NCBI GenBank assembly: GCA_003693705.1
Contig: RBZT01000364.1
Span: 21,500 to 85,499, forward strand
DNA: 64,000 nucleotides
Direction of reading: 5' to 3'
From: Polymyxa betae
Taxonomy: Eukaryota > Endomyxa > Phytomyxea > Plasmodiophorida > Plasmodiophoridae
Both the position numbers and the translations under genes were made by a program. This document shows, piece by piece, positions 2,638 to 61,509 of the stretch (the stretch's first letter is position 1; each line of letters begins with the position of its first letter). The notes below the pieces were generated by a model. The model was not told the origin of the DNA. It worked only from the letters and a program-made list of their open reading frames with translations, and ran no database searches.

Positions 2638-6879
<4,242 letters not shown>

Positions 6880-7132
6880 TCTTTCAGTTCCAATCATGTT
6901 TATCCAAGGTCTTAAGGATCGCGACCAATACTATCGCTTACCAAGGATTTTATTCGTGTCTGTAATTGAAATAGTATTTTATACATTGTTGCTAATATAG
7001 CTTAATTTGACATGCTGTAGCCCTGGTAGCGCTCTCCTTTGATTCAGGATAGACCAACCATTGTTGAATGGTTGACTTCAGCGTGGCAGCTCTCCGTCAT
7101 GAAATTAAAAATGATCAGGCTTGCTACAATAT
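6880..7132. other. Convergent 3' intergenic spacer between ISWI and the VPS13 N-terminal segment
   Basis: The spacer is 253 bp between two stop codons facing each other. It is AT-rich and no exon is recognised. It matters because one end of the inverted VPS13 segment must lie here if the segment was flipped. Confidence 0.5.
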
Positions 7133-10100
7133 TTAAATTTTTGAAGACATAGGTGCTAATGACACGAGAGCTAGTTTGAATGCATTGGCTTGGTTGACGT
7201 CCATAGACACAATAATGCGGCTGACGTCGATTGATGCCTGCGTCAGCGATGATGTAACAGCAGCATTTGCTGAAACTGGAGCGAGCAGAATGTTCCCATT
7301 GGTGTCAGTTATGGAAAAATCTGTTAATGTCATCGATAAAGGCGAGATAGCAACAGAAGGCAAATGGAAAGAGAGTGAAGGGCTGGATCTATAACCAAAA
7401 ACTGTCGGAAGGCGCCGAATGTGGTACGCATCTTGCAAAGGCACGAAAATAATAACTGGGGATATATTGACTGCCAGGGACGATGGCTTCCATTTCAAGT
7501 CGCTAGACTCTCTGTCTTCAGGCTCCGAAGTGTTTGGTTTGAATTTTATTGGTAGAGTGCTCCTGAGAATGGTTATATTAGCTGACGAAAAAAAGAGAGA
7601 TGGTACGACTAACCTATATATCTGAAATAGTCTGATAAAATCGCAGAAAACGGAATCCCAAACTAGTTTTGCAGGCGAAATATTAACCTAACAGAAATTC
7701 ATAATAGCTCATATATAGGTGAACAACTTACTGAGACATCTCGTTTGGCTGAAATTTCAATATCTAGGAAAGCAGAAATTTCTGTCGACAACAAACAGCG
7801 AAGTTGTCCCCGCCGTGAAATATCAATAACAACTCTCATTACAGTGAACTTATGAGCATCTGGAAGACTTCCCGAAGCAGACAGGCGAATGATTTTTAAG
7901 GAGAGAACAGCATTAACGAACATAGCATCGAAAAAGCAAAGCGTCCTTGTTGGCCGAAGCCCAATCAGTGATAAACGAAGCTCATTTACAGAGCAAAAAT
8001 ACTGGATGATGTCTGCTAAAGCAGCTCCGGACAAGACAATCAGATAAATGTGATGGAGACAAAAAGTAGCCAGCATATCTTTGAAGGAGAACGAATACCT
8101 TTTTGTCTGAGGAACCATCTCGCAATTAAGTTCGTTTACTGAGAAACAGCTGGAAGTCGACGGTTGCACCATTTCCCTAAACATATGCGCTTTTAGTGCC
8201 AATGACAACATTTTCACAGTTGCTGAGGAGCAGGAAATCCTTCTGGTCTGAGCTCCATATTCAGCTGCCAAACCTGCAATCTAACAACGATTTCAGAGGT
8301 AAGAACTGAAAAGCGACCTTTCGGGTTTTACATGGAAGGAGACAGAGTTCAGATTCGAATAGAGTTCATCTTCCTTCCAATCTGGCATATCTTCGATATG
8401 AAGAGTTAAACAGAAATTTCCAAGCACTATCCCAGATGTGGAGTTGAGCTTCCTCACTAATGAGGTTGAGCCTTTCTTGGGTTTTTCAATCGGAATGAAC
8501 TTGAACAGTTGTTCGAATAACACGACCGATGACGAAGACTTCAAATTTAAAAGCACCGCTGCCGATCGTATAAATATAGTATTGTACTGGTTGTCCTTGT
8601 CGGCAAATGAATGCAGGCATATTGAATTTGAGTAATCCTGCACTCGTTCTCTTATGGGAACGAAATGCGTATCAAACCCATGTCTCTCTAATGATTGTCG
8701 AAATTTGTCCGAAAGATCTGTTGCAGAGAGTTGAATATTCAAAAAAGGCATGAACTCCTTGCAGTCGTCATCCCCAGTTATAATAAGCAATGGTAACAGG
8801 GTAGATTGATCAACAAAGTTGAGAGATTGTAACGAGATCGAAAGTCGCTGATGTGAAATTTCTTTGATTGCAAGAATAGACAGATGTCTAGCATGCAGAG
8901 TGGCGAACATGAATGATATTGAATAGAAATGAAAAATCACGGATGGCGCTTGAATTGAAAGAATCATAGTATCGCTGGGCATATATTCACCTGCATGTGG
9001 TTAGTTTTCAGGAATGCAAAACGAATCAGCATACTAATATCAACCACAGAATTATTGTCAGGGGGCACAGCAAGGAGATCCCAAGCCCAAGAGCCCCAGG
9101 AATTGCTCCTTGGTTCGTCTGAGGCGATCGACATCCCTCTGAACATGTATAAGTAAACATTTACAGTGTACAGCTTGCGAATACCTAGAAGTGGCAGGCG
9201 CAACCAAATCAACCGGATGTTTCGTAGATGTTGATTGAATCGATTGTGACATTGCCAACAGCAATTGAATTTGCTCAGCAGAAAGTGAAATTTCGAGAGG
9301 CGAAAGAGCTAAAATGTCTGCCTAAATGGAATTATAAAACCTGTCCAAAGGAAATCGAACAAATCTGTTACTTGAAGTTTTGGTCCTGATTTCGGGACCG
9401 GTGTCGAGATCGCAGTCCTACGAACGACGCGAACAGATGGTGTTCGATACATTCTTATCCGAATGTCAAGATCTGCTGATAGAATCAGCTGCCACAGGAA
9501 ACCATGTCTTAGAGAAATTTCCAACCTAGGCCTCTCAGCACCGTCCGAGTTGCATATGATGGCCGGCCATGGCTACGTTCCTGTAATCTAGCTTAGAACT
9601 CATAGTTTAGGTTCCCCTCATCCTAACATCTTGAAGAGAAACTTCTAATGTACACAAAGAAATCACGTAATGAGTGAGACGCCACGGGGCAGAAGGAGGT
9701 TCGATCTGAACAGCCTCCCATTCCACGTTGGTCGGGCGAACATTTGCCGACGCAAATGAGATCTGAAGACAGCCAAGATCAGGACTAGACAATGTTAATG
9801 ATAGATCTTCGATATTGACAACAGCATTAGCAACAATACGTTCTGTATATCTAGTGTTAGCGAACCTTAAAGTAAGCACAAGAAAACGAACCTAATAGCG
9901 ACTTCGTCCATGAATTCGATTCACCTCCTTGGTTAACCGATTCGTTGCTATTGCCTTCGATTTCGATAAAATCCGAATCGATGGCACCGTCTTGAAGGTT
10001 TGGTAATGTGCCAGGTTCTTCCTTGGGTTTCGATAGCTCCCGATCTATCGAAAGCCTGATCTTCATTTTTGATAAAGTAATTTCTACACTTTTTGTAGTG

Positions 10101-10488
10101 ATCGAGGTCCAGGGGATTCGAATCTGAAGCCTGAGACGATTCGTATAAGCGGTTCCTTGAACGCAACTCTACACGAATTGCACTGTACTTTCCAATCAAA
10201 GCGTAATCAATTCGAAGTTGTTGATCATAACCTAACATACGCTTTACATGCGTTAGAACGAAAGAGAAAACAAAAGGTAAATCACCCACCTGTAAAACAT
10301 CCAGTCGTAATTCAACACCCTTCAGCACAACGTCTCCGCCTGAAGCACTTTTCAGAATTCCCCACGTCAGCTATTTAGTCATTAATACTCCAAAGCGAAA
10401 GATTCAAGTCCGAATCAATCTTATCGAGATACTGGTTGGCGAATTTCATTATCAAGCCGGACAGCGTCCGCTGCATGCTGCCCAGCAT
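7133..10488 (-). CDS. VPS13: VPS13 N-terminal third (chorein domain and adjacent repeats), partial
   Basis: Reading leftward, an ATG at 10488 opens with MLGSMQRTLSGLIMKF and DSDLNLSLWS, then an intron, then GDVVLKGVELRLDVLQ. That is the chorein start of VPS13 lipid-transfer proteins (ANQYL..LNLSLW..GDVVLKN). The next exons carry RSRNRLYE and an acidic insert, then ERIVANAVVNIEDLSLTL at about 9830-9780. This matches the repeat in which VPS13 has a bridge strand followed by an aromatic WxAV segment. Further exons contain PLEISLSAEQIQLLLAMSQS and a WAWDLL motif (about 9080), then long beta-rich exons (8982-8293, 8271-7699, 7498-7133). The frame ends at a TGA near 7133, convergent with ISWI. Roughly 950 residues are present, far short of a full VPS13 of about 3,000. 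The missing remainder lies on the opposite strand just to the right. Known role: bulk lipid transfer at membrane contact sites. Confidence 0.8.
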
Positions 10489-10534
10489 CTTGGCTGTCGT
10501 ATTTTCCGTTCAGCCAGTCACTAGCGGGGAAGCC

Positions 10535-13500
10535 AAATGAGCGCATTCAATCGAAACATGCCACGACGATGGCTACAGAGATGTCGACAATGCCGATATA
10601 AATGATGGATTTGTCAATGACGATCGCCGAAAAGCTTTTACGCCATCGACACGGAGACAGTGGGTGCAGCCCGCCCTATGTCGTCTCCCATCTGGAATCG
10701 TTGTCATTATCCCCCCATGTGGTCTGGCGTGTAAATACTGACTAGGACGCCTATGGGCAATGCCATATGTGCTCATGCAGAATTCAGCTCCACATTCACT
10801 GAGATTTCTTGTAACGTCGAATCAGTGAGGGCGTCGCTGAAGGGGAACAGCCCCAGCACTCTTCATATTGCTATTGATACCATCTCTTCGACCTATTTTC
10901 AGAACCATGACGTCGCCGTCTCAGTTTGGTGCAGTTTGATCATCTGCTGCGATTTGCTTATTGGTGTTAGATAGCCTCCACTTCAGTGAAGTCTTTGTGT
11001 AATGGGTCTGAGCGGGATTTGCTGAAACTACGAAATGGCCTGTCATTTGATAAAAGGAGGAATGGCGCCCACTTAATTTTACGCCCTTTAATTGCCCTCA
11101 TCGATATCGATTCCTTGAACGCTGGTGCTGAAGTTGTTACTGCTGCCATACCACTTCTTCCACCGAAATCTGTAGCATCCCCGAATCAGGCAGTTCAACC
11201 TGCCTTGGAAAACCTTTGTGTTTCTGTGGCCTCAACTGAAGTTGCAATTGCCGTCGACCCTAGTGCTGCGTTTGCTTTGTCTTTCCAATCAATGGAATAT
11301 CACTATAACTGTTCCTGTCGAGGAAAGCTCAGCGGACGTGTTCGCATCAGTCGACTCAAACTTCTGACGATATTTTGGAAAAAGGAATGCGATGATTATC
11401 GAACCTCGATCTCAAGTGATATCGATCTAGAAGTAATGCTAACTCCCAAGCTGGATCAAGTCGCGTTGACGCTGGAATCTGCTCTTACTTTCACTATCTC
11501 GTTTGCCATGATCGCGTTAGGTCAGAGGCTGCTCTCCAAAGTCGCACAACAGAAATTTTCTGCACAGAAACCCAACAAGACCGTTACTCCTAGGCTCGGT
11601 TTGAATATGCGATTTCACAGTATTGCTTTGGTAATTACTGGCGACAATTTCGACAGTATTACATTAACTGTAGCCCATATAGATGTGGGCAGCGAGAAAG
11701 TAACAATTGGGAATGTGGCCCTTCTGTATTCGGATCGTACGAACACGTCTTCGATTCTGTCATGCGTTTCTTCACCCGTCGCGTCCATCGATATAACTTC
11801 TAATTCCATCCTCGTAGAGCTGACAACATTTCGTGTTTGCGTCCCGCTTAAATTTCTAGCATTCTTGGCCTCTGTGCCGTCATCACCAAGCAACAGCAAC
11901 GTGGAGGCAGCGGAAATTATAATCTCTAAGCGGCGAAACTCATTACGTATTTTATTACCACTGTTCGATTTCCGACTCCAAGAGCAAGAGCAAACTTCAG
12001 TGTTAGCAATGGTTCAGATTTCTGACCTTTTTGCTCTCTGTTTGCCAACGATAAAAGAAGCTGACCACGTCTACTCTAACACGAACTCATTACGCTGCAC
12101 GTTCAGCGTAACCATTGCCAACAATGTTTTACTTCAGCAAACCCTAATAAGTCTCGAGCAAGTTTATTCAACCAACGAATTTTCAAGGCTCAATAGTTTC
12201 TATCCGGTGTCCCGAAGAGAGTCTTTATCAGTTTCTACAGATTCGATCAATATTCAGCTCTATTCTGAACAGATCAAGCCGATCCAATCTATCTTAGTGT
12301 CGCTTAACGGTCTTCCATCATCCCAAACTCGCAGCGGCCGCAAACACAGCATAACGGCACATGTTTCATCTCATGATGATTTACGCTCGCTTTATATTGA
12401 CGATGGCGCCTTTGAGCCGAAACCTGGTCGCATCACGCTGTCAGATAATGAAATCGCATGGTGCTATTTAACCTCTCGCTGTATCACTCATGTATCTCTA
12501 AGCGCTTTACACATTGCATTTGAAACTACGTTGACGCTGTAATCAAATCCTAGTTGTCTGGGTACGTTTGCTAATTTGGAAACAGATCTGCCGTAGACGT
12601 TGTCACCAATGAACGTTTTATCGTTGATCGAATCAGAGTCGATTTAAATCGAGCAACCGCGCATCAAGTCGTTTACTCTGTAATTGCGGAATCATGGGTC
12701 ATCTCATGGGCAGCATCGTCGCTATTAACCCCAGCTGATCTTGTGCAAATCATGCGAATTGATTCGATATCAGGGCCCACCGTTTCCAGTAGGTTGTTTT
12801 GAGACATTTATTGCCCATGATTGCACTATCACATTAGCCTTAGTTCCTTGTAACTCACATTATTATTGCTGCTTGTTGAAATCGCAAAGGAAAGTTCTGA
12901 CTATGCCTTGAACAGGAATCGCATCTTTAATTGTGCCCTCGCTATGTGTAACGTTAACATCAAGGAAAGACGGTTTGGAAGCGGATCATGCCATAATATC
13001 TGCTGAAGAGCTGCGCTCAAAGGCATTTACGACCAACAGGCTTTCAGTTATGACCATGCATATGAACCGTTTCAGGGGGAGTATTTTCCGGTATTCTGAC
13101 TTAGCCGAAGTCCCAATTGCCTTGACACATGAAATTGGCATTCTAATGATCAATAACGCAAATTTTCCTGGATCTGTAGTTCCGATTATGTTGCAGCAGT
13201 GCGAGAAATCTCGGGTGGTTAAAGTATCAATATCGAAAAAGCTGAGGTTGAATGTCAGCAGTTATGGTATCGATGCACTTTTATATGCTATTGAATCATT
13301 TCGTGATACACCTCAATCCGTGCCATTCGATGCAATCATATTCGCCGCCAACACCACAAAGCCTCATCACTGTAGTCAGATTCTCCTTCGTAATGATATA
13401 GGTGTCCCCATTCAGTATCGGCAGGAGGGTCAATTATCAACTGCTCTGTTATCACCGGGAGAGATGCATAACTTCACTTGGCCTTCGTAATTTTTTTCAT

Positions 13501-16500
13501 GCTTGATGACGCTTTTCTCACTTATGATAGGGTCATGAGGCAACAGTTGCGAATATCCTGTCATCCTGGAATATGGTCAGATCCTTTCACTCTAAAGAAT
13601 GCCACTGCAATTCGTTTACCGAGAAAGCAAACTTTCACCGATTTGCTTTTAAAGCAAGATGCGGCTCTGTATTCGTTCGATGCTCAACTTCATGTCGCAT
13701 CGAAATTGACTTTTGCCCTTGAGTTGAAGATTATCACCATATCGGATGACGATTTAGAAGAAACCTCTACCTATACCCTGACATTATTGCCTGAATCAGG
13801 AATCACACCAGTTCCTTTATGGCTGCCAAACGATCGGTCTGTCAATATCGAATATCAACTTCGTCCATGCATAGATGGCATCGAATGGCTCTGGGTAAGA
13901 ATAGAATCGTTTCAATTCCACTTTTCCTGCTCGTTTAATTCCTTGGATGCTTCTGCTTTGCCTCTCGTCCTTGGCTTCTTTTTTTATCTTTGTGTGATCT
14001 TTTGACTTAGTCTATAGAGTACGTTATCAACAGGTAGCGTGATCGTTTTTGAAGATGTTGACGGAAAGCACAAGCGCTCCGCCTGGCTGCATTCTGATGG
14101 TCGCACTATACGCCTGGCTCCTGCCGTTAAAGTCACTAATCAAACCGAATCAAATCTTTTCGTTCGTCTTTCTCAAACCGAGCCAATTCAAATTGATTCC
14201 CATCAATCTGTGCCCGTTTACGATTTTGATGAGAGATTACAATTGGCGGCTGCCATTCACATTGAAACCATTGATGTTGCAGAAACCGCTCTCCTCCTAT
14301 TTCCGAAGGAAGGCGAATCAGTTGCAACGTGCGTAATGTTGCCGTCGCAGCAAATGATGATTGTAGTTGCTACGTTGGATCCAGATCAGGGCTTACAGCT
14401 TGACCTTTTTTCCAGCGTCACATTCCGCAATCTGACAAGCCAGCCTTTCTCTGTGCTGGATCGCAACGACTCTGAGATTTCTATAAGCCCGAACGGTGTC
14501 GTCTCGACTTTTTGGGCAAATCCAATCGATGCTCGCTTTTACGTCGTCTACAGTGATGACGCTTTACGCAGCCAACAGCTTCACTGCAAGAGGTAATGTG
14601 CTACACATTCGCTTTTGACGTAGTTGCTAACCTTATTTACTCAGATCGGGATCTTTTGCTATTGATTTGTGTTCTGCTGTCAAGCTTAGTGTTACTAGGA
14701 TTGTCATGGTAATTCATCGCGTTTTTGCTGAATTCATTTTGTTCATTATTTACGTTGCAGTCAGTATCATGGACCACAAGCACATCATCGAAATCGTACG
14801 ACTCATCATCACGATGCGAGATAACACTGCAATCTCGATATTGCTTACATAATCGCTGCCCCTTCCCCATCTTTGTTCGTCCAGAATCACCAACGCCCGA
14901 TGCTATCGAGGTTATTACCGGTAACAGTCTTTTGTGGAAGCTGCGCCTTCAAATATTTACCTTTCTGTAGTGGCTGCCGGAGACAGCCATGATATTTTGG
15001 GCTGGTGTCTCGGTGCGCCTCCAATCCAGGCAATACGAGAGCCTCCTTCATTTGAATCTGGAGCCTGGCTATCTGACAATTCAGCATTGCGTCTGACCCG
15101 ATCAGCCGCTGATAAAAATCGATGGGGATGGTCAATGCCAATTAATTGTTTTGCAGGAGGTATCATTCTCTACTTAGATGATTTCTGGCTGATATTGCCT
15201 GGTAGAGAATCGTCAACAACGAGCACTGATTAAACTACGTAATCGCCAATCCGGCTTCGATATCGTTCTGTCGTGTGTTCGATTACGCGAAGACCATGTC
15301 ACACATCTGGTCTTGCTCAAGTTCTGACAATTATTCAACTTTGTTCTATTACTAACTCTGTCATAGCGATGTGCAAGTTCCACTCGTACTGGTGAACGCT
15401 ACTCCATATAAGCTCTCATACTTTGCATCATCGCTGAGATCTCCTACTCCGTCAAACCTGAACTTCATTAAAACTGATATCGAACCACATCAAAGCACTC
15501 AGATTCCTCCTGGTAAACACAACCATTACTTTCTTTTAAACTAACTAGAAAAACAGAGGTATCCGAAGATGAGCGGATCTTCACGAATGGCGTTACGCCA
15601 ATGGCATTGCATATTCGTGGAGTCGGTACCGAATGGTCTCCAGAACCCATTCTGCTTCGTAATGGTGTTCGTGCTCAATCTTTAGAACTGCCCTACATAT
15701 CATCAGGGTCATTGCATGTCCCGCAACCTCATATGCTAGGAAGCTCGCCAGCTCGAGCGGTCAAATCATCCAACAAACTGTTAGCTCTAGAGGTAAACAT
15801 GAACTGTTAACATTTTCGACGGCTCGTTTATTTTCTTCATTATATCTAGCTTTTGCCATAATTTTGCTATAAGCTTGTTTAGCTTTGAATAAAAGTTCTC
15901 AGATCTGTGAGATAATCCAATAATCATGTTGTTCAAGGTGGATTGCCTAGACCGGAATGGGACACTGGTTACAGTGATCGGTGTAAAAGACCATTCAGAA
16001 GAAGCAGTAGCGCTTCCAGAACACTCGTCGATATTGGAGATAGCTGCAGACTGTATTGAGGTATGCTTCCTGACGGCTTCAGCTGGCGCCGGATTCGCTG
16101 TCATTCTCGAGGATGTGGCCCTTTGCATAAATCAGCAGTTTGAACGGGTGTTTGAGTGTTTCTCATTTCGATTTGCAGTTAACAATTTCTTAGCGCTATG
16201 CCCGGATTTTACACGAACTCTCGAAACCGTTTGTGCCTTGCCGAACTGCTTCTCTACGAATTCGTTCCTTTCAACTGGAACACACGGCTAATCCTGTCGA
16301 ATATCCCATCGTCGCGCATAAGGCAGATCATGAGAGCAACAGTAGTTCCATTGAAATCCTTGTCTGTTTTGGTACCCAAATTGATTCGAATGATGAGCAC
16401 CAGCAAACCCCGCTTATGTATATTATGCATGCGGTTCATATTCAGGTTGGGAAGATGCTCCCTTCCTCGCTTGCAATGACCTCTTTGTGCAGAAATTGAG

Positions 16501-18331
16501 TATCTCGTTAGCGCCTTTTCGCTTATATATCGAAGACGCCTTCATATCAACGGTAACGGAATTCATCCACGAGCTCACGAGATCAATTTTCAAGATATAT
16601 GGCCAAACGGAATCTGCTTCTCAACCTGTTTGAACCCTTGTGCTAATTGCTTCCATCCAAATGACAAAGATCTAGGTGCAGGCTAGCGTAGGATGGCGCT
16701 CGGATCCGGAATTCGTTGCCTTATTAAATAACTCAAGTAAGCCTCGATTTGCTGTGCACCATTTATATATCAGCTCTATCGAACTCAGGTTGGTTGTGAT
16801 ATCTGGCTATTTCTTAGTATTTCTTGTTATATTGACTGTCAGATTGACGTATTCCGGGTCTCGGCCGTATTTAGCCTGCCAGTCCTTACCGATCACGCTT
16901 GCCGCTTTGGAGCTATCGTCGGTTCTATCTCCTACTGACCGTCTGATCAAGGAGCTTTCTGCGAATTATCTCGCCGTAATTCTTCTTCGTTCTCATATAA
17001 TCTCCTCTAAAGTACAATCAGGATGTGATCATGATTGCACCAGTTCTGTTCGGCTCAATGGATTTGTTGGGAAACCCAACGCAGCTCATTAGCAGCATAT
17101 CTCGAGGTATTGGAGATCTTGTCAGATTGCCAACTCGTGCCTTGACTCAAGGTAGCCTCTACGGAACTGTTCATGGCATTTATTCTCAGCATTCTTAGGG
17201 CCAAGGGCTTTAGTTTGGGCTACCTTGCAGGGTGTCGGATCACTGCTTCATAATATGAGCGAAGGAACTTTGACTTCAGTTAGCGGATTTGCCCACAGTT
17301 TGGCTCGGAATGTGGGTGGAGTTTCGCCTGATCACTACCATCTTTTTCAAACAAATCGCAATTCAGCAGCTGTAAATCAGTTTCTGACTGCACTGCTCGT
17401 TGTGCTAACCTGGTTCAGATTCATCAACGTGGGATCTCGACAGGGCTGGTTAATGGCGCCACCAGTCTTGCTACGGGCTTGGTATTAGGCGTAACAGGTT
17501 AATACACGAATTCTCCATCCATGCTTATCATGTGAGACTAACGCATGCTGACAGGAGTTGTCAGTGCACCCATACGTGGAGTTGCCCGCCAAGTAGGTTT
17601 ATTAATTTAAACATTTTAAGGTAATTAATGTATATAGGGTACATGGGGATTTGTAAAAGGCGTGGGTGCTGGGCTAGCTGGCCTAATCACAAAGGTAAGA
17701 TTTGAGTGGTCTCAATCTGACCTTATAATGATTATTAGCCCGTTTCTGGAGCGTTGGATATGGTTAGTGAAACTAGCCGAGGAATAGCTGCTAGTGCTGG
17801 TCTGTCACCAACCTTTCCTGCGCTTAAGTACCAGCAAGAGCCAACTGCTCATGTAAATCATCTGTTGATCTGATATTGACGGATTGTGATTGTATATAGG
17901 ACGATATCTTTGGCCAAATTTCAACTCTACGTTTGAAAGCAATATCGCAGAATATGCAGGAGAGCTACAGAAAACACATTTACGCCAATAGCGTCCTTGA
18001 TGCAGGTTCTTATTATATTATTGTATTATTATGCTTTCTGTGATTATCACCATTCGTTTGTTTCATAGCTGTCTTACATCGCTTATTTGAATCTTTAGAT
18101 GGAGCATTGTTATACGAACGTGCGTTGATTGTTTGCACGCATGCAACAATGCATATAATAGCTCCTGGATCGGACCGGGTTGTACAATCTTTGGCATATA
18201 ACCAGGTTCAAGTGAATTTCTCGGGTTCTCACTCTGTTGAAGTTAGACATAAGGGAGACGTTTTGTTTCATTTCAAGACAGACCATACGACCAGACAGTC
18301 GTTCGTCAATTGTATATGCCAGAGTCTTTAG
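10535..18331 (+). CDS. VPS13: VPS13 middle and C-terminal two-thirds, partial (no chorein start)
   Basis: The large exon 10986-12542 is a beta-rich VPS13 repeat region, and coding appears to begin upstream (NDDRRKAFTPSTRRQW, about 10605-10655). Then follow ILLRNDIGVPIQYRQEG (about 13380), the VAB/SHR-BD region (IVFEDVDGKHKRSAWLHSDG, about 14042) and ITLQSRYCLHNRCPFPIFVR (about 14825-14880), which is the family's SHR-BD signature. The C-terminal half has VPLVLVNATPYKLSYF (about 15370), the ATG2_C/VPS13_C helices SISRGIGDLVRLPTRAL (about 17090-17150), VSGFAHSLARNVGG and GFVKGVGAGLAGLITKPVSG (about 17645-17755), and a terminal PH-like domain ending at 18331. At least ten introns of 40-70 nt interrupt it. 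No start codon or chorein domain belonging to this strand is visible. It is either the rest of the gene whose first third is inverted next door, or an independently expressed half. Confidence 0.82.
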
Positions 18332-18485: not shown

Positions 18486-20949
18486 TTATACTGCCTCAGC
18501 TGTCCGTTCCAGTATCACTTTCACATCAGACTCGGAATGCTCCAAAGCGAGAGCATAGATATCTGAATAATTACTGGCATAGTGAACACAGATCTCGCCT
18601 TTCACATAGTTAGGCAGCTCTTCAAACTCGGCCTTGTTTTCTGCTGGAAGGACAATATCAGTACAACCAGACCGTCGAGCTGCCATGACTTTCTCTCGAA
18701 CGCCTCCGATTCGTAATACTTTCCCGGTTAAAGTCACTTCACCAGTCATGGCTAAATTGTTGGTGACTGGGCGGTTCAAAGCCAAAGACAATAAAGATGT
18801 GACCATTGCACAACCGGCGCTTGGTCCGTCTTTCGGGGTCCCACCGCATGGTACATGCATGTGAATGGCACATGTGTCCAGCACCGAATTTTCAGGGTCG
18901 ATTTTGGCTAAAAATGCCTTTGCGTATGACAATGCAATATTTGAAGATTCGGTCATGACTTCACCCAAGTGTCCAGTAGTCTTTAGCGACGCCGAACCTT
19001 TGCTTGCGATGCTTTCGATATATAGTGTTTGCCCACCATGAGACGTATATGCCAATCCCATAACAACTCCAGGAGGTGTTCTGTCATGATAACGATCGCT
19101 CATGTAAACAGGTAAGCCTACGTAATCGCAAAGATTCTCAGGAGTTATCACGATTTTCTCTTTGAACTCTGCAGCGACCTGCAATGTCACTTTTCGGAAA
19201 ATCTTATCGAGGTGCTGGCGAAGATTACGAACACCCGCCTCCCTGCAGTATCCTCGAATTAAAACACCAAGCGCTTCCTCAGTGATTTCTGCCTTTTCGT
19301 CCGTGAGGCCGCAATCGGTGAGTGCCCGAGGCACCAAATACTTTTGAGCAATGGCAATCTTTTCTTCCGTTACATAACCAGAAAGCGAAATGACCTCCAT
19401 TCGGTCCAACAACGGCCGAGGGATCGTTTCCAGAGTGTTGGCGGTCACTAGAAACAGAACTTTGCTGACATCAAAGGGAACGTCCAGATAATGGTCCAAA
19501 AACGAATTGTTCTGCTCTGGATCTAACACCTATAAACATGTTAGCAAAAATAGCATTCCAAAAAGACAATAACTCTACCTCAAGCAAAGCTGATCCGGGG
19601 TCTCCGTTAACGCCCCTTCCAACTTTATCGATTTCATCGATAAGCAAAACAGGATTGCTAGTCTGCGTCACTTTCAAAGCCTGGATAAGCTTTCCAGGCA
19701 TGGCGCCGACATAAGTTCTTCGGTGCCCTTTGATCTCAGCAACATCGGTCATACCGCCAACAGAGAACCGGAAGAATTTCCGATCGAGGGCTCGGGCGAT
19801 CGACTTTCCAATACTCGTCTTTCCAGTGCCTGGTGGACCAACCAGACACAGAATCTTGCCATTGACGGTACCTTTCAAGCTGCCGACAGCAATCAGCTCC
19901 ATGATGCGCTCTTTAACGTCGTCCAAACCAAAATGGTCGTCGTTCAGGACTTGCCGAGCTTTATCCAGATTGAAATTCTCAGGTGTAGAGACACCCCAGG
20001 GTAAGATAGTAAGCCAATCCAGATAATTTCTCGTGACAGCGAATTCAGACGATGAAGGCTCTAGCCCGCTCAACTTAGCACATTCCTCGTTGATCGTGCT
20101 CTGGACGGGTTCAGGGATTTGTCGAGTGCCGCATCGAGCTTGGAATTTTGATAGCAGGACGTCTTTCTCGTCTGTCTCCATGCCGAGCTCCTTCTTGATC
20201 GATTTCAATTGCTCCATCAGCACGAAACGTCGGTGGGTTTTGTTGCCGCCCGGGTCCATTTGGCGATGCAATTGCGATTGTACCTCTCCATAAGCGATCT
20301 CCTTCCTTAGCAATTGCAAAGTTAATTTCATTCGCTCGGGAATCGAAGTGCATTCGAGCACTGCTTGTGCAGCGGCATTGTCTACATTGGTAATCAGACC
20401 AGCAACACAGTCGGCCAGATCGCCGGGATTGGAGACGTCGACTTGCTCGACAATGGTGGAAAATTGCTCCTTAAAGACCGGGCGAAGTTTCAGAATCTCT
20501 TTGCAGGCCAAGACGATTTCGTTAGTCAACGCGGTTAAATCTTCAGTGTATGCTTCGTCGGCAATCGTTTCCACAGCAACCTGAAATGGGTCGGTGGCAA
20601 CAGCTTCAGTTGCATAAATTCTATTCAAGCCGATAACGACGACTTGCGATTGCCCTTGCTTATGAGGAAACACGCGAAGCACCTGGGCTAACAGCCCGGT
20701 CTGATGAATATGCTCGATTTTGTTAAAGGAGCAATCGTTCGAGACGTCTTTCGACATAAACAGGCCTACATTCATGGGCAGGCCGTCGCGAAGTACTTGC
20801 AAGGTCGAAGCGAACTTTTCGTTCGGTACTACAATCGGGGCAACAATCCCTGGGAAGATCGGCCTGCGATACAGCGGCAGTGCCAGCAGCGACGGCGGCG
20901 TCACGAGTCCGCCAAATCGCCGCCTTTGGATCAGCCTCGAGACAGTCAT
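18486..20949 (-). CDS. LONP1: Mitochondrial Lon protease (ATP-dependent)
   Basis: Lon degrades damaged proteins in the mitochondrial matrix. Two exons (20949 to about 19580 and about 19529 to 18486) are joined by one intron of about 50 nt that splits the sequence after DPGSALLE and before VLDPEQNNSF. The order is a LAN/N domain starting LPLYRRPIFPG, coiled linker helices, and Walker A (GPPGTGKT, about 19830). Walker B is LLIDEIDKVGRG (about 19625), followed by sensor and AAA lid. The C-terminal protease domain has the catalytic serine in PKDGPSAG (about 18825) and lysine in TGKVLRIGGVREKV (about 18700). The length of about 820 residues is normal for a Lon with a short leader. The ATG at 20949 gives MTVSRLIQRRRFGG, an arginine-rich leader typical of mitochondrial import. 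An upstream exon cannot be excluded, because a minus-strand MKAAPVFRSVMLAAPRAQS peptide lies near 21080. Confidence 0.95.
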
Positions 20950-21350
20950 TGCAACCACGATTGTTTATGACGATAACAGCATGAGGACCCACAGACTGTC
21001 AGGACAATGCCTGTCCAGCAACAGTCACATCCGTCATGATTGGGCACGAGGCGCAGCCAGCATCACTGACCTGAATACGGGCGCGGCCTTCATCGCCACT
21101 CTGAGACAGCACCCTTCTGCCTTCTATTCGGTTCTGGAATCGACGCGTGATATCGAACAATATCTCGTTCTATAAGCGCTTCCAATTTACAATCACAGCT
21201 GAATTACCAGCTAAAATTATAAAGTACTTACCCAGAGATCGAGTTTGCATTGAAGGAAGATTCATAAAGCTGTCTTAAAATTAGCAAATTCCGATTTATT
21301 GAACGGAGATCTGGTTTTTGTATAGTATAAATGAGAGGGCATAAACACAT
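20950..21350. other. Lon upstream region and eIF5A 3' flank
   Basis: The region is about 400 bp between the Lon start and the eIF5A stop. It must hold the Lon promoter. A 64-codon plus-strand frame at 20981-21175 (MRTHRLSGQC...) is open, but I recognise nothing in it and do not call it a gene. Confidence 0.35.
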
Positions 21351-23318: not shown

Positions 23319-23797
23319 ATGAGTCGGGTGCGTGGGCCGCGCCCCAACCAACACAAGTGGGCTCGTCGACAATTCAGCCGGGACTTTGGCACGTGGCAGC
23401 GTATGGCCGCCGATTGGCTTAAAGATACTGTCCTAAGAAATCCGCTTCACAATTTATCGCGGTCGCTTTGATCATATGGGGTCGATCGGTCGTCTACCTT
23501 CGATTGTCAAGTGTGGTTTCTGATCGGTACGGTTTCAGGGTTGCCTTACAGTCTCTTGCTTTTACCGTACGTCGAACATTACGTTCAAGTTGTAGCGAGA
23601 TCCTGTTTACTCTGCATCACTGGTTGATGGTCACGAGTAGCTTTTGTCTCTACGCTTTCTTTGCAGTTGGTCAGTCTCACGTTAGATTTTATTATATTAC
23701 TTGCGTTGAGCTGAACGCATCCACACAAAAGTGTCCCGTTCAATCTTCATTCATAATTACTATAACCAAACTGCCCAAAGAGAGTTTCTTTCTGTGA
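23319..23797 (+). CDS. Possible small one-TM protein, spliced; unknown
   Basis: An ATG at 23319 opens MSRVRGPRPNQHKWARRQF and continues RMAADWLKDTVLRNPLHNLSR, a basic segment that reads as coding. A GT-AG intron (about 23460-23539) is needed to reach a hydrophobic stretch (FTLHHWLMVTSSFCLYAFFAV, about 23600-23665). The exact splice phase and 3' end are not settled, and the frame after about 23670 looks less like protein. A basic N-terminus followed by one TM segment would suit a small mitochondrial inner-membrane subunit, but that is only a guess from shape. No family was recognised. The 3' end touches the tail of the cathepsin Z relic on the other strand. Confidence 0.4.
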
Positions 23798-24600
23798 TTG
23801 ATCCTGAGCGGGAATTAATCACGTGAAGTTCATCATCTTGAGTGCTGATACCGCCCTGTAAAATGGATGTAAATAGTAACATAAAGGGACGGCAATCCAT
23901 TCATACCAGTAGCAGAGATTTCAAATCCCGAAGTTGTTGTTGCTTCGAACGATTTACAACCATCCATGTTCACCTTTTTGTCTACGATTAAGTACCAAGA
24001 AAGAACCTTCAAAAACAATTACCAGTATGTCCCCCATGAGTTCCGAACAGTCTAATTGTAACTTGTCAACGAAATCCACACAAGATATTGGGTAGTAGGA
24101 GCTCCTATAGTGACCATGTGTGTCCTATAAGCCAGGTGCTTAGGAGATAGCACAGCCTGTTGATACTTGATGAAAATCAACGAACTACATCCTTTAAATG
24201 ATGTGGCGTTACGCTTAATATGTTTCTCTCTTCATTGTTGAATTTGCTGGTTGAGATCCTTTGGGCGATACGTATTCGGTCAAATCAGCCATCGGATCAT
24301 TTCATGCGGTCGGGCGCTTCTCACAACTGCCAAATTAACCCAACCTTTGGAACAGCAAACCTTTGACCAGGGCTGACTCTCGAAAACTTTTGACCGGGCA
24401 TCTCTCTGATCTCTTTTGGCCGACGCCGATTTGAAACTATCCTTGTGGTTATCATGGCCAGGAAATTCATAATATCCAGGACAACAAGCCTTAGAGACAC
24501 CATCGTTTGAGTTGATACCAGAATAAGCCAGATTCATTGACCCAATGTGGTCGCGGATAACAGCCAATGTAAAACGTTATGACTTGAAGGAAGCCTGCCT
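23790..24600 (-). pseudogene. Cathepsin Z-like relic with internal deletion
   Basis: This is a second copy of the cathepsin Z gene that lies to the right. Its 5' half (24600 to about 24250) matches that copy's early exons: ARSKVFES against TMPGRRTFE, then VVRSARPHEM against [10 protein letters not shown]. Its 3' part (about 24110-23790) matches the last exons: NSWG followed by an intron, a GEHGW-like exon, and the final exon with the DDELHV block. The segments for the catalytic-cysteine exon, [15 protein letters not shown] and the histidine exon are missing or reduced to scraps (AAGCGTAACGCCAC near 24205 matches the KRNA codons of the good copy). Frames are broken. It cannot encode an active protease, and the papain-fold active site is gone. 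Confidence 0.7.
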
Positions 24601-25266
24601 CTTAACGCCAGCCATGCCCAGAGTGGCCCAATTGACCGGTCTATGATAAACTGAGAGGCTCCTTCAATACTTTGGAAACATTTCGGCCTCAGGCTATAGA
24701 GGGGTTCGATCGTTTCCAGGGGATCCCATTCCTCAACGTTGCAACTAGACTGCTACTCTGCAACAGCAGGCGGCGATCAAGCGATGTTTCATCTTGTTTG
24801 CATAACTGGAGTAGCCCTGATTGCTGATGATCATGGTGAGCAGCACGCTCCATCATGCATATTGCCAAAACCCTGGATTTGGCTTCTGTAGAACCTTTTG
24901 TGAAACGAGTCTGCTCAATTTGGTTAGGGTTACTTGGATTGTAGGGATCGACCGTGTTTGTACCTTCAACTGGTGAGTCGTCTGTTAGGTAAAGTGCAAA
25001 CACAATCTCTTGCTGTAAGCTGAGCGTACATCGGCTCATTCTCATTACTTGTGATGAGCCCGAGTTGTGTGTATCCCAGTTGGTGCCTATACGCTTGTAT
25101 TGCCAACAATACGTAGATACTTATATCAAAGCGATTGTTGGTCGGCATGATTATCAACTCCTAACGCCCATCGCTTACCGTAAATTGGAAAAACGTTCAA
25201 TACATGAAAGTATCCGGTTTAATTATACTATAATCAAACGACTCAGGCAGCCTTTAATTCTTTCTG
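24601..25266. other. Spacer between cathepsin Z copies, including duplicated upstream sequence
   Basis: The 24660-24860 part shares scattered stretches with the region upstream of the intact copy (about 26850-27050), for example TGATCATGGT followed by a purine-rich run. This suggests the duplication unit included upstream DNA. A 118-codon minus-strand frame (25045-24689) is open but resembles nothing I know. Confidence 0.35.
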
Positions 25267-26695
25267 TTATTGGTCCTGAGCGGGAATAACGACATGGAGT
25301 TCGTCATCTTTCTGGAGAGTTGGAGTCGCCCTGTAAACGGATGCAATTAGTAACACAAAAGAGCGACAGTCCTCACATACCAGTTACATCCAGACTCGAT
25401 AACAGCGTTATTTTTACCTCGAACGATTCGGAACCATCCGTGTTCTCCCCTAAACCAACGATTAATAAACGTTCAGAAGTATAGCAAAGTAGTACCAGTA
25501 TGTTCCCCATGAGTTCCTACCAATCTAGCAGATTTGTCAAAATAAACTCAAAATGGATCCGCTACTGCAACCTACCCAATACTTCGTGTCGGTCTTGTGA
25601 TCGTAACCCCATCCGGCAATTGATATAATGTGATTAGCTTCTTGGAACTGATCTATAGTAAGAAGATAAATTGGCAGAACAACTCTTAAATCAAGAACAC
25701 AGACCAGGAGCGTTGACGATGCCTCCGGTGTAGTCTTCTAAAGCATTAGCGTCAATCTGGCAAGCAATCGGACCACGGGCGTAGATTTCTGCCATCTGAC
25801 AATTGTTAGATGCAGGAAATAGTCGGTTTAGTAACTACCATCTCCTGCTCTCCGTGCGCTTCGCCATACTCTTCAACAAACCATTTTGGATAATCCTTGA
25901 CAGGGAAGCAGATACCGGAATCTGGGCTGCAATTTCGGCATTCTATGGTTGGTCAGCGCAAATGGAAACACTTCAAATAAAGCTCGATTACGATCCATGG
26001 GATTACACTCGTCGTCTCGGGCTTTATATTGTTGGCACGTATCTTCAGGAATACCATTATCGTGAACCCATTCCTGAATCATTTAAGCACATAGCAAAGT
26101 GAGCACAGGAGGTATTTACGTAAGCACCACCGCCATCACCTCCGTTGCATGAACCGGCAACATCAGTACCACAGTTCAAAAGAACTTGGATAGACAGATT
26201 GACTGCAGCAAATCAGCATCCAGATGTCACATTCTGAGACAATAGCCTCGTCATTACTCTCAGGGAAAGTAGCGTTACGCTTAATCTTGATTCTGTCAGC
26301 AAGCGCAGACAATGTTCCATGAGCCCAGCATGAGCCCTAAAAATGATCGCAAAACAACAGCTTTACATGATCGTGTGGACCTACACAGTATTGAGGAATA
26401 TGCTGGTTGAGATCCTTTGTACAATAATTCACACCCGAAACATTACGCCAATCAAAATGCTCGGGCAAATCATCCATCGATAACATCTCATGCGGTCGGG
26501 TGTTTTTTACAACTGCCAACAATTAAAAATTAGTGCCGACCAGAAAGCAAACGAGACCAGGAACTAACCTTCAAAAGTTCTGCGACCGGGCATCGTCCTG
26601 ATCTCGCTGCGTCGAGGACGATTGGATGAAAATCCTGTTGTTACCGTGGCCAAGATAGCTACATTAACCAGGACAACAAGCCATAGAGACGTCAT
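25267..26695 (-). CDS. CTSZ: Cathepsin Z/X-type papain-family cysteine protease
   Basis: This is a lysosomal or secreted carboxypeptidase of family C1A. The ATG at 26695 starts a signal peptide ([20 protein letters not shown]). A very short propeptide follows, as in cathepsin Z, then [20 protein letters not shown] and [14 protein letters not shown] is the diagnostic cathepsin X mini-loop. After an intron comes [15 protein letters not shown] with the catalytic cysteine. Later exons hold [41 protein letters not shown] and [12 protein letters not shown], then [22 protein letters not shown] with the catalytic histidine, RNSWGTYW with the asparagine, and [11 protein letters not shown]. It ends [11 protein letters not shown]. 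At least eight introns of 36-60 nt interrupt it. Catalytic Cys, His and Asn are all present, so it should be active. A deleted copy of the gene sits immediately downstream. Confidence 0.88.
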
Positions 26696-27592
26696 CTTTG
26701 CCAATGCAACTAAGAATGGACCAGGTCAAAAAGAGCCGACTCGGTTCCGGCTAGCACCCAAAGTGAAACGTTATGTCGCCAAGGGGTTGCTCCTCGACGT
26801 TAGCCAACGCCGCCCTGAATTGCCCTTTCATGGACTGATTCTGTTACATTGGTGACGATCCTTCAAGACATTCGGCCTAAACGTTTACAAGATTCGACTC
26901 ATGGCAATCAGGATATTCTATATCTGTGTTTTTTTCCTACAAAAGTGCAACTGTAGACTGCGATAAACGACCTTTCCATGCTGTTCACCTGGTTGCAGCA
27001 GCCATCAAGAGAACTGATCATGGTAAGCGTGATCAGGAGTGTCGTCCAATTGCTGAATAGGCTTCTGCTTGGAGCTATTGTGGGTTCCAAGATAAAAGTT
27101 TTCAAGCGAACGTAAAGCTCCTCAATCTCACATCAAGAAGTAGCTGCTCATTTTAGAATGTGATGGTAAATTCGATGTTGAAATTTGCAAAAGTTAAAAA
27201 AATGAAACAATCAATGCATGTGTATCGCCAGACTAAGTGAAGTAACAGTATCGATTTGATTCAGTTTCTTAATCGTTTTCCGGAATCTCATTCGTTTGCT
27301 GTCGTAGATGCCAGAGATGTTTTAAGAGCTTCCTTGACAGCTCATTCTGATGAGTTGCTTAATCTATAAAAAAGTTTGGTAATTGTAGTTTATAGACTAA
27401 AAACCAATCCGAAGTGAGAAATTGGCTTTACTACAAAGCCACCAGATGATCTTATCATCCTTCACTCTATTATCTGTATCGCCCAGCCATGCTATTTACG
27501 TCTAAGCTCGCTGGAGGCTGGCAGGTACCTGCTACGGAGATGTAGTCGGTGGCCCAGCCACCCCATCTGGGATTGAGGGGCCACCCCGAGCT
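26696..27592. other. Intergenic region between divergent genes
   Basis: The region is about 900 bp, AT-rich from 27100 on, with no convincing exon. It must hold the cathepsin Z promoter and the promoter of the plus-strand gene at 27593. Confidence 0.4.
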
Positions 27593-49330: not shown

Positions 49331-49593
49331 GCCATTTTCGTCATTTAATATAGAAAAATACAAAATTCCTATTTAATATGTTATATTTCAGAAGTTCACC
49401 TTGCCTCCTTTCCAAAACCTGTCCTGTAAATGGCAAGCAGAAAATTACTCTTTCTCGTGTGGGATAAATATTTTGTCAATACAATTAACTTATCGTTACA
49501 TATTCACATTCGTACTAAAAGACATTATGACATTACCAATGTAACAGCGATCCGTTCGCCCTTTTCCTGAAATCGCTCATTAATCATTTCGTA
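49331..49593. other. Intergenic spacer upstream of nicastrin
   Basis: An AT-rich spacer of about 260 bp. Likely cyclin terminator and nicastrin promoter. Confidence 0.4.
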
Positions 49594-52314
49594 ATGCGCA
49601 TCGCCGTTCTGGCGGTAGTCGTCGCCGGCGTCGTCAGCCTCAGTATTGACGACCTGGTGTACACATCTTTACCAGCCGATACCGCCTGCGTTCGCTTGCT
49701 GACCAGAACTGGGCAAGTTGGCTGCGGCGTTGGTGATAGTCGTGGTGTCCTCTATGATGTGGACGACGTGTTGAGCTGGCGCGTTTATGACCCTTCCCAA
49801 GCTATCTCTGTTTTGATGCCACATTCGGCTTTAAATCAAACTACGATTGATCGTCTACAGAGCAAGTCTAATCTGGCTGGAATCTTTCTCCATTCTTTAT
49901 CGAAAGCATCGCCTTCTGGTAGACTCTGCTTGTGTTTATCTGCGAAGCCATCGATATTGTTTAAAAATGTTAATTATGTTTTGGTAGAGTTGCTGTTTGC
50001 GCCCATCTTTGGTTGTTTTCGTTGTTTAATACGATTGCAGATTTCCATTCTCCAGCGGAGAAGTTGCCATTCTCGTACCTGTCTACGAATTCGACTCATA
50101 TCTGGAATCCATCCGGGACAAATCTCACTGGTTCAGCTTTTGGATTCGGTATTGTCACTGTCGCCGATCCAGACCTTCCAACTGTGATGCGTCTTGTCGA
50201 AGAAAATCGTAAACGCATTCAAGTACGTTGAATGTTTCATGGCCTCTGGTTCTACTGGCAAGTCTTCTCAAGATTATTACTGTAGAACTATTAGTATCTG
50301 CTGTAATTGTTTTGCGACGTTTATTCCACTATCAGTTTCTTGCTTTGCTATTTTACTATTTTAAGTTTCGCTATTGATGTATCTAACTTAAGCTTGGTAG
50401 AGCGGGTTGGATCCTCGTAACCAAGCACAGTTCAATTATCCGATGGATGCAGGCGGTAACTCTGTAAGCTGTCTTCAATCTGGGAACTGTCTTCCCATTG
50501 GCGGGTCAGTCCCGATATTGTCATCTCATTTTTTTATATTTTTATTCGCAATATGCTTTGCCATTTGAACAAAGCTCAGTCGATTATGGTATTCTTTTTC
50601 ATGTAAATTTCTTCCATCACTCCCACTATTTGCCCCTTGCCTCTAAGCGCTGATGTTTGGTTTGTGCAGATACAACGTTTGGTCTTCTCGAGCTAAAATT
50701 GACAACTCGACGACCCCGATCGTTGCGGCTGTCACCCAAATGGATGCATCAGCCTTTATACACGCCCATGCTACTGGTGCCAATAGCGCCATGTCAGGTC
50801 TGCTTGCACTTCTTGGTGCATCAGACGCCATCTCTCGAATCGAGGACCTCAACCTGGGGATGTCATCCCCTCAGATTGTATTCGCTGCCTTCAATGGCGA
50901 ATTCTTTGACCTAATAGGGTCGAGAAGCTTCGTCAAGGATCTCTCTTCGTTTAGCTGCAGATCGGTCTCGTCTATCTCCAACACACTGTGTAAATTTCTG
51001 GGAAACCTTTCATTCGTTTCATTTTGCGCTTTTAAATTCATTTCTGAAGCAGTAGATTTCTTGACCTGCCATTACCTGTTTTTTCATAGTTGCTGTTAAC
51101 TGTAGTTGCTGTTAACTGTAGTTGCTTGTAACTGTATAACTGAAGCTCGTAGGTCTGGACCCATATCGAATAGATACGTCTTTCTCATCTATTGCAAATC
51201 TGGTCAACTCGGGATCAAGTATCATCGAGATCTCTCAAGTTGGCAACGGGCAGCCATCCGATCCATTTTATTTCCATACGACCTCCAATACGCTTACAAC
51301 CGCAATTAACTCAGCAACCCAGGGATTGACAGTTAATCTTCAGCCAGCATCTGCCGTCACAACGATCGGTTTACCACCATCATCAGCTTTGGCTTTTCCG
51401 GCCTCTGTTGAAAAATTGGTGTTAACGGGGTATGATACCGAGTTTAATTCCCTCGTGTATGGCAGCGAGCTTGATGCCAATTTTACAGATTCTTCCATTC
51501 AGGTAGATAATGCCCATTCAACTGTCTATGTTCAACCTTCTTTTTGGATAATTTCTTTAATCCATTTCCACTTAATTAATCGATCCTTATCCCTCAACAA
51601 TTCACTTGCTATTGAAAAGTTTTCTTGCTGAGTTTCGATTTATGTCCTGGATCTTCGCTACATCACTTTTTCCATGGATTTAAGGTTCATGTAAAAGTGC
51701 TGATCCTATTTCTTTCAGCGGATATGTTCGGCATCCACAATCGTTGCGAGGACGCTGTTAACACAAGTTGGATACTCAAATGCACATTCGGTCAGGCTGG
51801 TAGAGACTTTTTGACATGTCTGACGTTCCTTCAGGTTTCTGTAAATTGCACATTAATCAAGGAACTGAGCGATTGTGTCGGTCCATTGGGGTTCGAGTGC
51901 GACATAGCTGGGAGGGTGATGGCATCTTCTGCAATCGCTGCTTCATCGTTTTCGAAGAAAGGAGCTGTATCGCACTACGCCTCCGTTTATCAGCAGCGAA
52001 CGCCATCCCAAGTGACCGACACGCCCCGTTTCGTTTACGACTGGTGGACTTCGCTGGGGCTGCACGCCTATTATCATGACGCCGTCGATCCCGACCTCAG
52101 CGTCGGTTCGGATGGTTTCTGGAAAGCGGCTGACGGTCCCGGCAGGCTTTGGACCGAATCAAACTGGGTCCGGCAGCGTGTTCGTTTATATGTGACTGAA
52201 GCGCCATGGACAGGTGCCGTTATGTTCGGTTTGGGATGTATTGTCGCAGCTGCATCCGTTGCATCGTCATTCTTTTTATCGAAATATGCATTACGAACTA
52301 TAAAAATGGATTAG
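49594..52314 (+). CDS. NCSTN: Nicastrin, gamma-secretase subunit
   Basis: Nicastrin is the large glycosylated ectodomain subunit of gamma-secretase. The ATG at 49594 begins a signal peptide (MRIAVLAVVVAGVVSLSIDD). The lobe opens ACVRLLTRTGQVGCG, a family hallmark. Then come FNYPMDAGGNSVSCLQSGNC and LPIGG, and after an intron YNVWSSRAKIDNSTTP, matching the nicastrin CLPLGGYNVW block. The peptidase-like fold continues with VAAVTQMDASAFIHAHATGA and IVFAAFNGEFFDLIGSRSFV, where the glutamate of NGEFFD aligns with the conserved Glu in FQGETFDYIGS. Further exons carry N-glycosylation sites (NTSW, NCT) and CEDAVNTSWILKC. One TM helix (AVMFGLGCIVAAASVASSFF) and a short cytosolic tail (KYALRTIKMD) end the protein. 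At least seven introns, some near 200 nt. Confidence 0.9.
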
Positions 52315-54310: not shown

Positions 54311-54790
54311 ATGCTCTGGGCCAAGGTCATGGTCCGGCTGGCCGTAGCGGCCCAGGTCACGGGCCTCGTCCTGTGCCTGTGCGCTGCCCTCATCCAGTAC
54401 TTCTACGACGAGATGGCGCCCGGCGTCGTACAGGCCCCGAACGAGCGCTGCAACCGCCCGGCGGCCCTGTTCTGGTCCGTGAACCTGTCGCTGATCGTAC
54501 TGGCCCTCGTCCCCGTGGCTCTGTCGCTCTGGATGCTGTACGCCGATCGTTGTTGGTGGCGGGGGCCGCGATCGCCGCCCTTCTGGTCCGCATCGCGGCG
54601 CACGCCGCCGTACTGGCCCTGTGCCGGACCTGCCTGCTGATGCGGTTCGCTCTGGGCGTGACTGTGTCACGGCCTGCAGCTCTGCAGTCTGATCGCCTAT
54701 TATGAGTGTCTGAGGAGGCTGCGCGCCCGTATTGCCCTGCACGTGACGATGCCGTCTTCAGACCCGGATTTCTTCTGGCCCGTGCGGCTG
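54311..54790 (+). pseudogene. Four-TM membrane protein, frameshifted tandem copy
   Basis: From the ATG at 54311 the frame reads MLWAKVMVRLAVAAQVTGLV, a Cys-containing loop (APNERCNRPAALFWSVNLSL) and TM2. After LYADR (about 54548) similarity to the neighbouring paralog moves to the next frame (LLVAGAAIAALLVRIAAHAA, CRTC). It then moves back to the first frame at about 54660-54671 (GLQLCSLIAYYECLRRLRAR, ALHVTMPSSDPDF). Two compensating single-base indels about 110 bp apart would explain this. The GC content is far above that of neighbours. It is probably a recent pseudogene, or two sequencing errors in G/C runs of a functional gene. Confidence 0.55.
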
Positions 54791-55299
54791 AAGCCTTCGG
54801 ATTCTGGGACCTGATGACGCTGCTGTTTCGGGTGCTCTCTGTTCCAGATGCAGAACGACATATTATTTATCACATCACGTGCGCTATTAACGATCAAGCC
54901 CCCATCGCAGTTCCAAATCCGAGCTAATACACAATTTCATTGGAATCTTAAAAAGTTTTTTTTTTCAATTTTCTGCAATGGTCCTTTATGATACCGGTCA
55001 TACCACTGAGAAAATTCTGTCAATACTGCGGGGTTGTTTTCCGGACCTTAACATGGCGGAACCAGAGCTGCAACAAGTCATGGACAGTCGAAGTACAGTA
55101 TTACCTAGAAACAAGCCCCTGCCTGCGCTCAAACCTTGATACATAACTGCGCAGTTCGTGGAAACCGTCTTTCTGTACAAAAACTGCGCGCACTTTGTCC
55201 CACCACTGGGTCAATCACCGGTTTACCTCCGTCATTAATTGTGCCTTGACAGATCTTTTGGACAGCCGCCCAGCTCCTATCCAAAATCTCGCATACCGA

Positions 55300-55833: not shown

Positions 55834-55916
55834 TCTTAGCGCAGTCTTCATATATGGATAATACAGGGCTGCTCACGCATCGTTCATTCGGGTTTCATCG
55901 ATTTTTTCCGAGCTGT

Positions 55917-60820: not shown

Positions 60821-61160
60821 TCAATAATGTAGCATTCCATTTTTGAGCATAACGACTTGAGTGTTTTACAAGATAGCTTGGACATCACACGATATCGCAA
60901 TCAACAGCATTAACTTGAACAACTGTAAAAAGGAACACATTTGTTGATGAATAACAACTTAGAATAACAATCACTTAGTGAATAGTATATACAGCACAAT
61001 TTAAGATCAATAAAACTGCATACATTGTAGATTCGGGGACAGCGCGGCCTCAATCCTCTAGTACCGTAGACAAACAGTTTGACCGCTCACAGATAGCCGG
61101 CGACGCGATGATTTGCATTGTATTTGTTGCATTTTTGTTGCAATTGTTTCATTATCTTTG
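60821..61160. other. Intergenic spacer before the minisatellite
   Basis: AT-rich, no gene seen. Confidence 0.35.
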
Positions 61161-61365: not shown

Positions 61366-61509
61366 TGTGATAGAATCTTCGACGACGAAACGATTTGGGC
61401 AACAAAAAAGTGAAAGTTTATATAGGTTCTAACATCCCTCCAGTAACAAGGTCGGCAGCTCTCCCGACCATCCTAAACATGCAGCCGGCCGTGGTGCCTC
61501 AATCCCGAG

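What the first reader, a model, noticed from the sequence alone, without database searches (positions are those of the whole stretch)
7133..18331. VPS13 split in two, with its N-terminal third inverted relative to the rest
Seen: chorein-containing N-terminal exons run leftward from an ATG at 10488 to a stop at 7133, while the middle and C-terminal two-thirds run rightward from about 10535 to 18331. Each half lacks what the other has, the two sum to about one normal VPS13, and fewer than 50 bp separate them. Flipping about 7.0-10.5 kb would restore one collinear gene. So this is either a natural inversion that turned one gene into two head-to-head half genes, or an assembly inversion. If natural, a chorein-only lipid-transfer protein and a separate adaptor half would be a new arrangement.
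Basis: partly seen in the sequence, partly recalled or inferred. Interest (0 to 1): 0.75.

Follow-up and report, generated by a model that had tools for sequence, protein, structure and literature searches.

The report
VPS13B gene broken by an inversion
A large gene for a lipid-carrying bridge protein (VPS13B) seems to be present once in this parasite-like genome assembly, but its front third is written backwards relative to the rest, and raw reads are needed to tell an assembly mistake or recent break from a genuine two-part version of the protein.

Summary
The minus-strand gene 10488-7133 (10 exons, 954 aa) and the plus-strand exons up to 18331 (about 2040 aa) are the N-terminal third and the remainder of one VPS13-family gene, an ortholog of VPS13B rather than VPS13A/C/D. 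In Plasmodiophora brassicae, the closest relative found, the ortholog is one collinear 2499-aa protein: the left part matches residues 1-975, the right part lies within 1106-2465, in order and without overlap. A search of the host assembly (24.4 Mb, 541 contigs) showed no second copy, and both junction stretches match only themselves. No inverted repeat beyond chance and no Ns mark the junctions. Nine of nine dynein genes with both ends found are collinear, so the assembly is not generally scrambled. Against an established second gene, the right part has no clear start: its frame is open upstream to 10541 through an acidic stretch without ATG, and 10 ATGs precede the in-frame ATG at 10753. Assembly error and real inversion cannot be told apart here. 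I lean weakly to the working gene being collinear (assembly error, or a recent break). An established two-protein VPS13B remains possible and would be new. Raw reads or RNA-seq would settle it.

The parts
7133..10488 (-). N-terminal part of VPS13B, 954 aa; exons 10488-10389, 10339-10272, 10168-9892, 9842-9628, 9572-9372, 9321-9185, 9138-9035, 8990-8332, 8280-7732, 7687-7133
   Evidence: gene model; Pfam VPS13_N E=1.8e-18, 66.2 bits, below the curated cut-off of 80; P. brassicae residues 1-975
10602..18331 (+). Middle and C-terminal part of VPS13B, about 2040 aa; start codon uncertain (10602 or 10753); last exons approximate
   Evidence: P. brassicae residues 1106-2465 in three pieces; VPS13B C-terminal region
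10541..10659 (+). Open acidic stretch without in-frame ATG, possible linker of the collinear gene, or leader of the right gene
   Evidence: 12 of first 30 residues D, N or E against 2-3 in the other five frames; but no similarity to P. brassicae in that frame and codon scores that do not decide
7134..7150 (.). Most likely place of the left junction if the break lies in an exon (wider bound 6880-7150)
   Evidence: inference from the end of homology and the stop at 7133 and the ISWI stop at 6879
10489..10601 (.). Interval of the right junction, between the left gene's ATG and the earlier candidate start of the right part
   Evidence: inference
3448..6879 (+). Neighbour: ISWI-type gene (SNF2 and SLIDE domains), ends at 6879; start of range is only where I first saw it
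   Evidence: name ISWI from the domain pair, recalled
18486..20964 (-). Neighbour: Lon protease, convergent with the right part
   Evidence: (Lon_C E=3.6e-69), ORFs

Best explanation
This is the one VPS13B ortholog seen in a plasmodiophorid-like genome. In the assembly its 5' third is inverted by what looks like one balanced two-break event, with breaks between ISWI and VPS13B and in a poorly conserved linker inside VPS13B. My commitment, held weakly, is that the working gene is collinear and makes one bridge-like lipid-transfer protein of about 3000 aa, as in P. brassicae, and that the inverted order is an assembly error (about 0.4) or a recent or isolate-specific break (about 0.1), not an established pair of half-genes. 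Shown: identity, complementarity, order, no second copy seen. Inferred: which orientation is real. Lipid bridging between membranes is inferred from the family.
For: The closest relative found has one collinear protein covering both parts. The right part reads in frame upstream to 10541 through an acidic stretch with no ATG, and 10 ATGs lie in the 264 bp before the in-frame ATG at 10753 (base-shuffle mean 3.97; 9 of 2000 shuffles as many), odd for the leader of a settled gene. Inverting one interval accounts for both parts without overlap or visible loss.
Against: No Ns at either junction (one N run in the window, at 52953-52971), no inverted repeat between the junction intervals beyond chance, both junction stretches unique in the assembly. 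9 of 9 dynein genes with both ends found, and 2 of 2 VPS13-type genes on C1, are collinear. Both breaks fall where a viable natural inversion would need them (inference). The stretch 10541-10741 scores 1.2 on codon use, below the lowest (1.8) of 35 coding stretches, which include training data, and shows no similarity to P. brassicae in the open frame.
Confidence: 0.5

Rival explanations
1. A real, established inversion. VPS13B is now two divergently transcribed genes sharing a promoter of at most 264 bp; a 954-aa chorein half and an about 2040-aa C-terminal half dock end to end to rebuild the lipid groove, or act apart.
For: Clean junctions without Ns or repeats; both parts are open, with splice sites; a stand-alone start is possible at 10602 with a 46-nt intron 10700-10745, a usual length here, or at 10753; dynein control 9 of 9 collinear; ISWI intact.
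Against: No clear start for the right part and 10 upstream ATGs. No left-half homolog among the 7996 candidates scored, so no sign of the same split elsewhere. No expression data.
Confidence: 0.33
2. A real split whose two transcripts are joined by trans-splicing into one VPS13B mRNA, as described for Giardia Hsp90.
For: The right part lacks a clear start codon; precedent in Giardia (abstract starts only).
Against: Pairing of the left tail with the right leader is not better than shuffles (-93.7 against a mean of -96.4; 124 of 200 shuffles as low), and direct repeats are no longer than by chance.
Confidence: 0.05
3. Two unrelated VPS13-family genes that happen to lie head to head.
For: The assembly holds several VPS13-type genes: 6 VPS13_N matches at 5 loci.
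Against: Both parts match ordered, non-overlapping stretches of one P. brassicae protein, and no second VPS13B that could complete either was seen.
Confidence: 0.01

Closest known systems
VPS13B ortholog of Plasmodiophora brassicae (P0011, 2499 aa)
   Same: Homologous over both parts, in the same order; sister to the window in the tree, 100/98
   Different: One collinear protein there; two oppositely oriented parts here
Animal VPS13B / COH1 (P0001-P0003, P0013, P0089)
   Same: Same clade, 100/99, together with three rows of unsettled name and lgn1743; N-terminal and C-terminal regions match
   Different: Animal proteins are 3769-4011 aa and collinear; the middle is too diverged to align directly
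Giardia split Hsp90 (HspN and HspC)
   Same: A conserved protein encoded in two pieces in a protist (abstract starts)
   Different: There the pieces lie 777 kb apart and are trans-spliced; here they are adjacent, head to head, with no sign of trans-splicing

Membership tests
VPS13B | N-terminal VPS13_N (chorein) region | tested here: met
   E=1.8e-18 over left residues 9-191, but 66.2 bits against a curated cut-off of 80; animal VPS13B residues 6-211. The six-frame family search of the genome did not list this locus, presumably because its exons are short
VPS13B | Groups with VPS13B rather than VPS13A/C/D | tested here: met
   11-row clade 100/99 in a 26-row tree of the C-terminal region; 25 of 90 returned proteins were used, chosen by hand; drawing root is the midpoint
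VPS13B | VAB adaptor-binding domain | tested here: inconclusive
   14.5 bits against a cut-off of 22.6
VPS13B | Repeating beta-groove fold along the whole protein | not testable with these tools
   spliced models cannot be folded here and the P. brassicae protein is longer than the limit; not tried
VPS13B | One continuous reading direction and polypeptide | tested here: not met
   as assembled, the parts run on opposite strands
Trans-spliced split gene | Pairing or shared signals between the two transcripts | tested here: not met
   duplex and direct repeats at shuffle level
Trans-spliced split gene | Chimeric mRNA | not testable with these tools
   no reads available

The most novel reading that the evidence does not exclude
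A natural inversion turned the VPS13B lipid bridge into a two-gene, two-subunit system under one divergent promoter: a chorein half that takes up lipid and a C-terminal half that delivers it, meeting at the linker between two groove repeats, so that a lipid bridge is built from separate pieces.
Probability: 0.25. Interest if true: 0.75.

Novelty: new member of a known kind. Interest (0 to 1): 0.38.

Why it matters
If real and expressed as two proteins, it would be a natural test of whether a bridge-like lipid-transfer groove can work from separate pieces. If it is an assembly error, it marks a misassembly in this draft and returns the gene to an ordinary VPS13B. In either case it records VPS13B in a plasmodiophorid-like genome; a full-text search for 'VPS13' with 'Plasmodiophora' found no paper in the open-licence library.

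Tried and rejected
Inverted repeats at the junctions: 14 short pairs in 6400-11200, none joining the two junction intervals; longest inverted match between the intervals 8 nt, and 127 of 200 shuffles reach that. Trans-splicing signals: none. Whether 10541-10740 is coding: inconclusive. Open frame versus P. brassicae: 168 of 300 shuffles as high and 477 of 500. In one search frame +2 scored best (3 of 500 shuffles as high), but it holds stops and was one of six tried. Codon score 1.2 for 10541-10741 and 3.2 for 10541-10660, with other frames scoring higher. Twelve donor models anchored at the acceptor 10745 do not decide: best is donor 10683 (17 of 500 shuffles as high), then 10660 (44) and 10700 (89). 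Half-length homologs of the left part: none at E<=0.01 among 7996 candidates scored. Rfam scan of the window: no match. tRNA scan: none. Bacterial promoter/terminator scan of 6800-7300: none, and not suited to this organism. Unrelated paralogs: rejected. Dynein ends were paired by contig, strand and spacing (spans 9.8-13.4 kb); 2 of 11 N-terminal loci (C349, C237) had no C-terminal match and say nothing. The notebook entry calls two ORFs near 54-55 kb similar; I did not compare them.

Full report
What is there. On the minus strand an ATG at 10488 opens a 10-exon gene ending in a TAA at 7133; its nine GT-AG introns are 44-103 nt and the product is 954 aa. On the plus strand exons run from about 10.6-10.75 kb to a stop at 18331; the model forced to that end has 21 exons and 2040 codons, with approximate exon ends from about 16.4 to 18.0 kb. 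To the left, a plus-strand gene with SNF2 and SLIDE domains (ISWI by that pair, recalled) ends at 6879. To the right, Lon lies on the minus strand.

What it is. Pfam gives the left product VPS13_N at E=1.8e-18, although 66.2 bits is under the curated cut-off of 80, and gives the right product only a sub-threshold VAB match of 14.5 bits. By sequence the left product finds VPS13 structures in the PDB (6cbc E=1.2e-5; VPS13A 9yg4 E=1.6e-4). The first protein search, with the two products joined, returned 10 proteins, VPS13B ranking first to third; both parts score best with VPS13B among these ten (left 50.1 bits against 27.2 for the next protein; right 120.9 against 93.6 for a 5063-aa plant-like protein that matches twice and 65.4 for fungal VPS13). 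A search with the C-terminal region returned 80 proteins, the best being a single 2499-aa protein of Plasmodiophora brassicae at 47% identity over 88% of the searched region. A 26-row tree of the C-terminal region (25 of the 90 proteins returned, chosen by hand, plus the window) puts the window beside P. brassicae (100/98) in an 11-row clade (100/99) with all five named VPS13B rows and none of the rows named VPS13, VPS13A/C or VPS13D; some deeper forks are weak. The word '(mitochondrion)' on the P. brassicae record is as deposited; its contig is 1.37 Mb.

The organism. GC is 45.0%. Published GC is 45.1% for Polymyxa betae, 45.7% for Spongospora subterranea and 58.5% for P. brassicae (PMC6328671, passages). 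The assembly has 24,426,232 bases in 541 contigs, which equals none of those whose figures I saw: 27.09 Mb in 1001 contigs, 28.08 Mb in 2340 scaffolds and 31.51 Mb in 346 scaffolds (PMC12883290, passages). I call it plasmodiophorid-like and leave it unnamed.

One gene, first third flipped. Against the P. brassicae protein the left product covers residues 1-975 (27.5% identity, E=3.6e-93); the right product covers 1534-2465 (34.9%, E=1.5e-135), 1215-1417 and, weakly, 1106-1233. The matches do not overlap and their order is right. Between them lies a stretch where neither side aligns well, and the left homology reaches to about four codons before the stop. The P. brassicae protein finds 10 places in the assembly: eight at this locus and one in each of two VPS13-type genes on contig C1 (16 candidates scored, so this is the tool's view and not a proof of absence).

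Real or artefact: against an artefact. There are no Ns at the junctions; the one N run in the window is 19 bases at 52953-52971. No inverted repeat links the junction intervals beyond chance. Each junction stretch has one match in the assembly, itself. As a control on order, dynein heavy chains give DHC_N2 matches at 11 loci and Dynein_C matches at 9; all 9 loci with both ends are on one strand in the right order, spanning 9.8-13.4 kb. Of five VPS13_N loci, the two on C1 have C-terminal matches and are collinear; for the other three I have no C-terminal match to compare. The control would miss an inversion confined to the middle of a gene. The breaks also fall between genes and in a linker, where a viable inversion would need them and a random assembly break need not (inference).

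Real or artefact: for a collinear working gene. The relative is collinear. The right part's frame is open upstream to 10541 through an acidic stretch (12 of 30 residues D, N or E, against 2-3 in the other five frames; a comparison made after seeing it) without an in-frame ATG. The ATG at 10753 is preceded by 10 ATGs in 264 bp (mean 3.97 in base shuffles, 9 of 2000 as many). Against this, the stretch has no similarity to P. brassicae in the open frame and a codon score of 1.2, below the lowest (1.8) of 35 coding stretches. A start at 10602 followed by a 46-nt intron 10700-10745 would give a stand-alone gene. I put a collinear working gene (assembly error or recent break) at about one half and an established split at about one third.

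How it would work. VPS13 proteins are bridge-like lipid-transfer proteins of repeating beta-groove domains; human VPS13B has 13, and the last eukaryotic common ancestor is inferred to have had a VPS13B ancestor, with VPS13B-cluster members in SAR protists (PMC7613979, passages). A break in a linker between repeats should harm such a rod least; if both halves are made they might dock end to end. That is inference without direct evidence. Trans-splicing, known for Giardia Hsp90 (abstract starts), was considered; pairing between left tail and right leader is not above shuffles.

In print. Searches for 'VPS13' with 'Plasmodiophora' and with 'gene fission' found no paper. 'VPS13, chorein, protist, split' matched 3 and listed 2; in the passages I saw of those two there is no such arrangement. 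'VPS13B, evolution, eukaryotes, bridge-like lipid transfer' listed 4, of which I opened one. The library holds open-licence papers only.

Noticed in passing
52953-52971: A run of 19 Ns, the only one in the window, suggesting the contig was scaffolded. None in the 7.5 kb fetched from upstream on the same contig.
   Followed up: partly
61117-61413: Minisatellite with a 9-nt step.
   Followed up: no
63298-63717: Cluster of near-perfect inverted and direct repeats of 26-55 nt; neither tRNA nor Rfam scan found anything there.
   Followed up: no
54001-56000: GC-rich patch, 58% against 45% for the window; two ORFs there (54130-54702 and 55147-55830, plus strand) have no Pfam match.
   Followed up: partly
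23786-26699: Direct repeats about 1.5-2.2 kb apart at 72-93% identity, perhaps a tandem gene duplication.
   Followed up: no
49531-50184: ORF with a nicastrin small-lobe match, E=9.8e-12.
   Followed up: no
L001 and L002 (G000 C1:176701-185857 and C1:45458-53874): Two further long VPS13-type genes on the same strand of one contig, about 130 kb apart; both collinear.
   Followed up: partly
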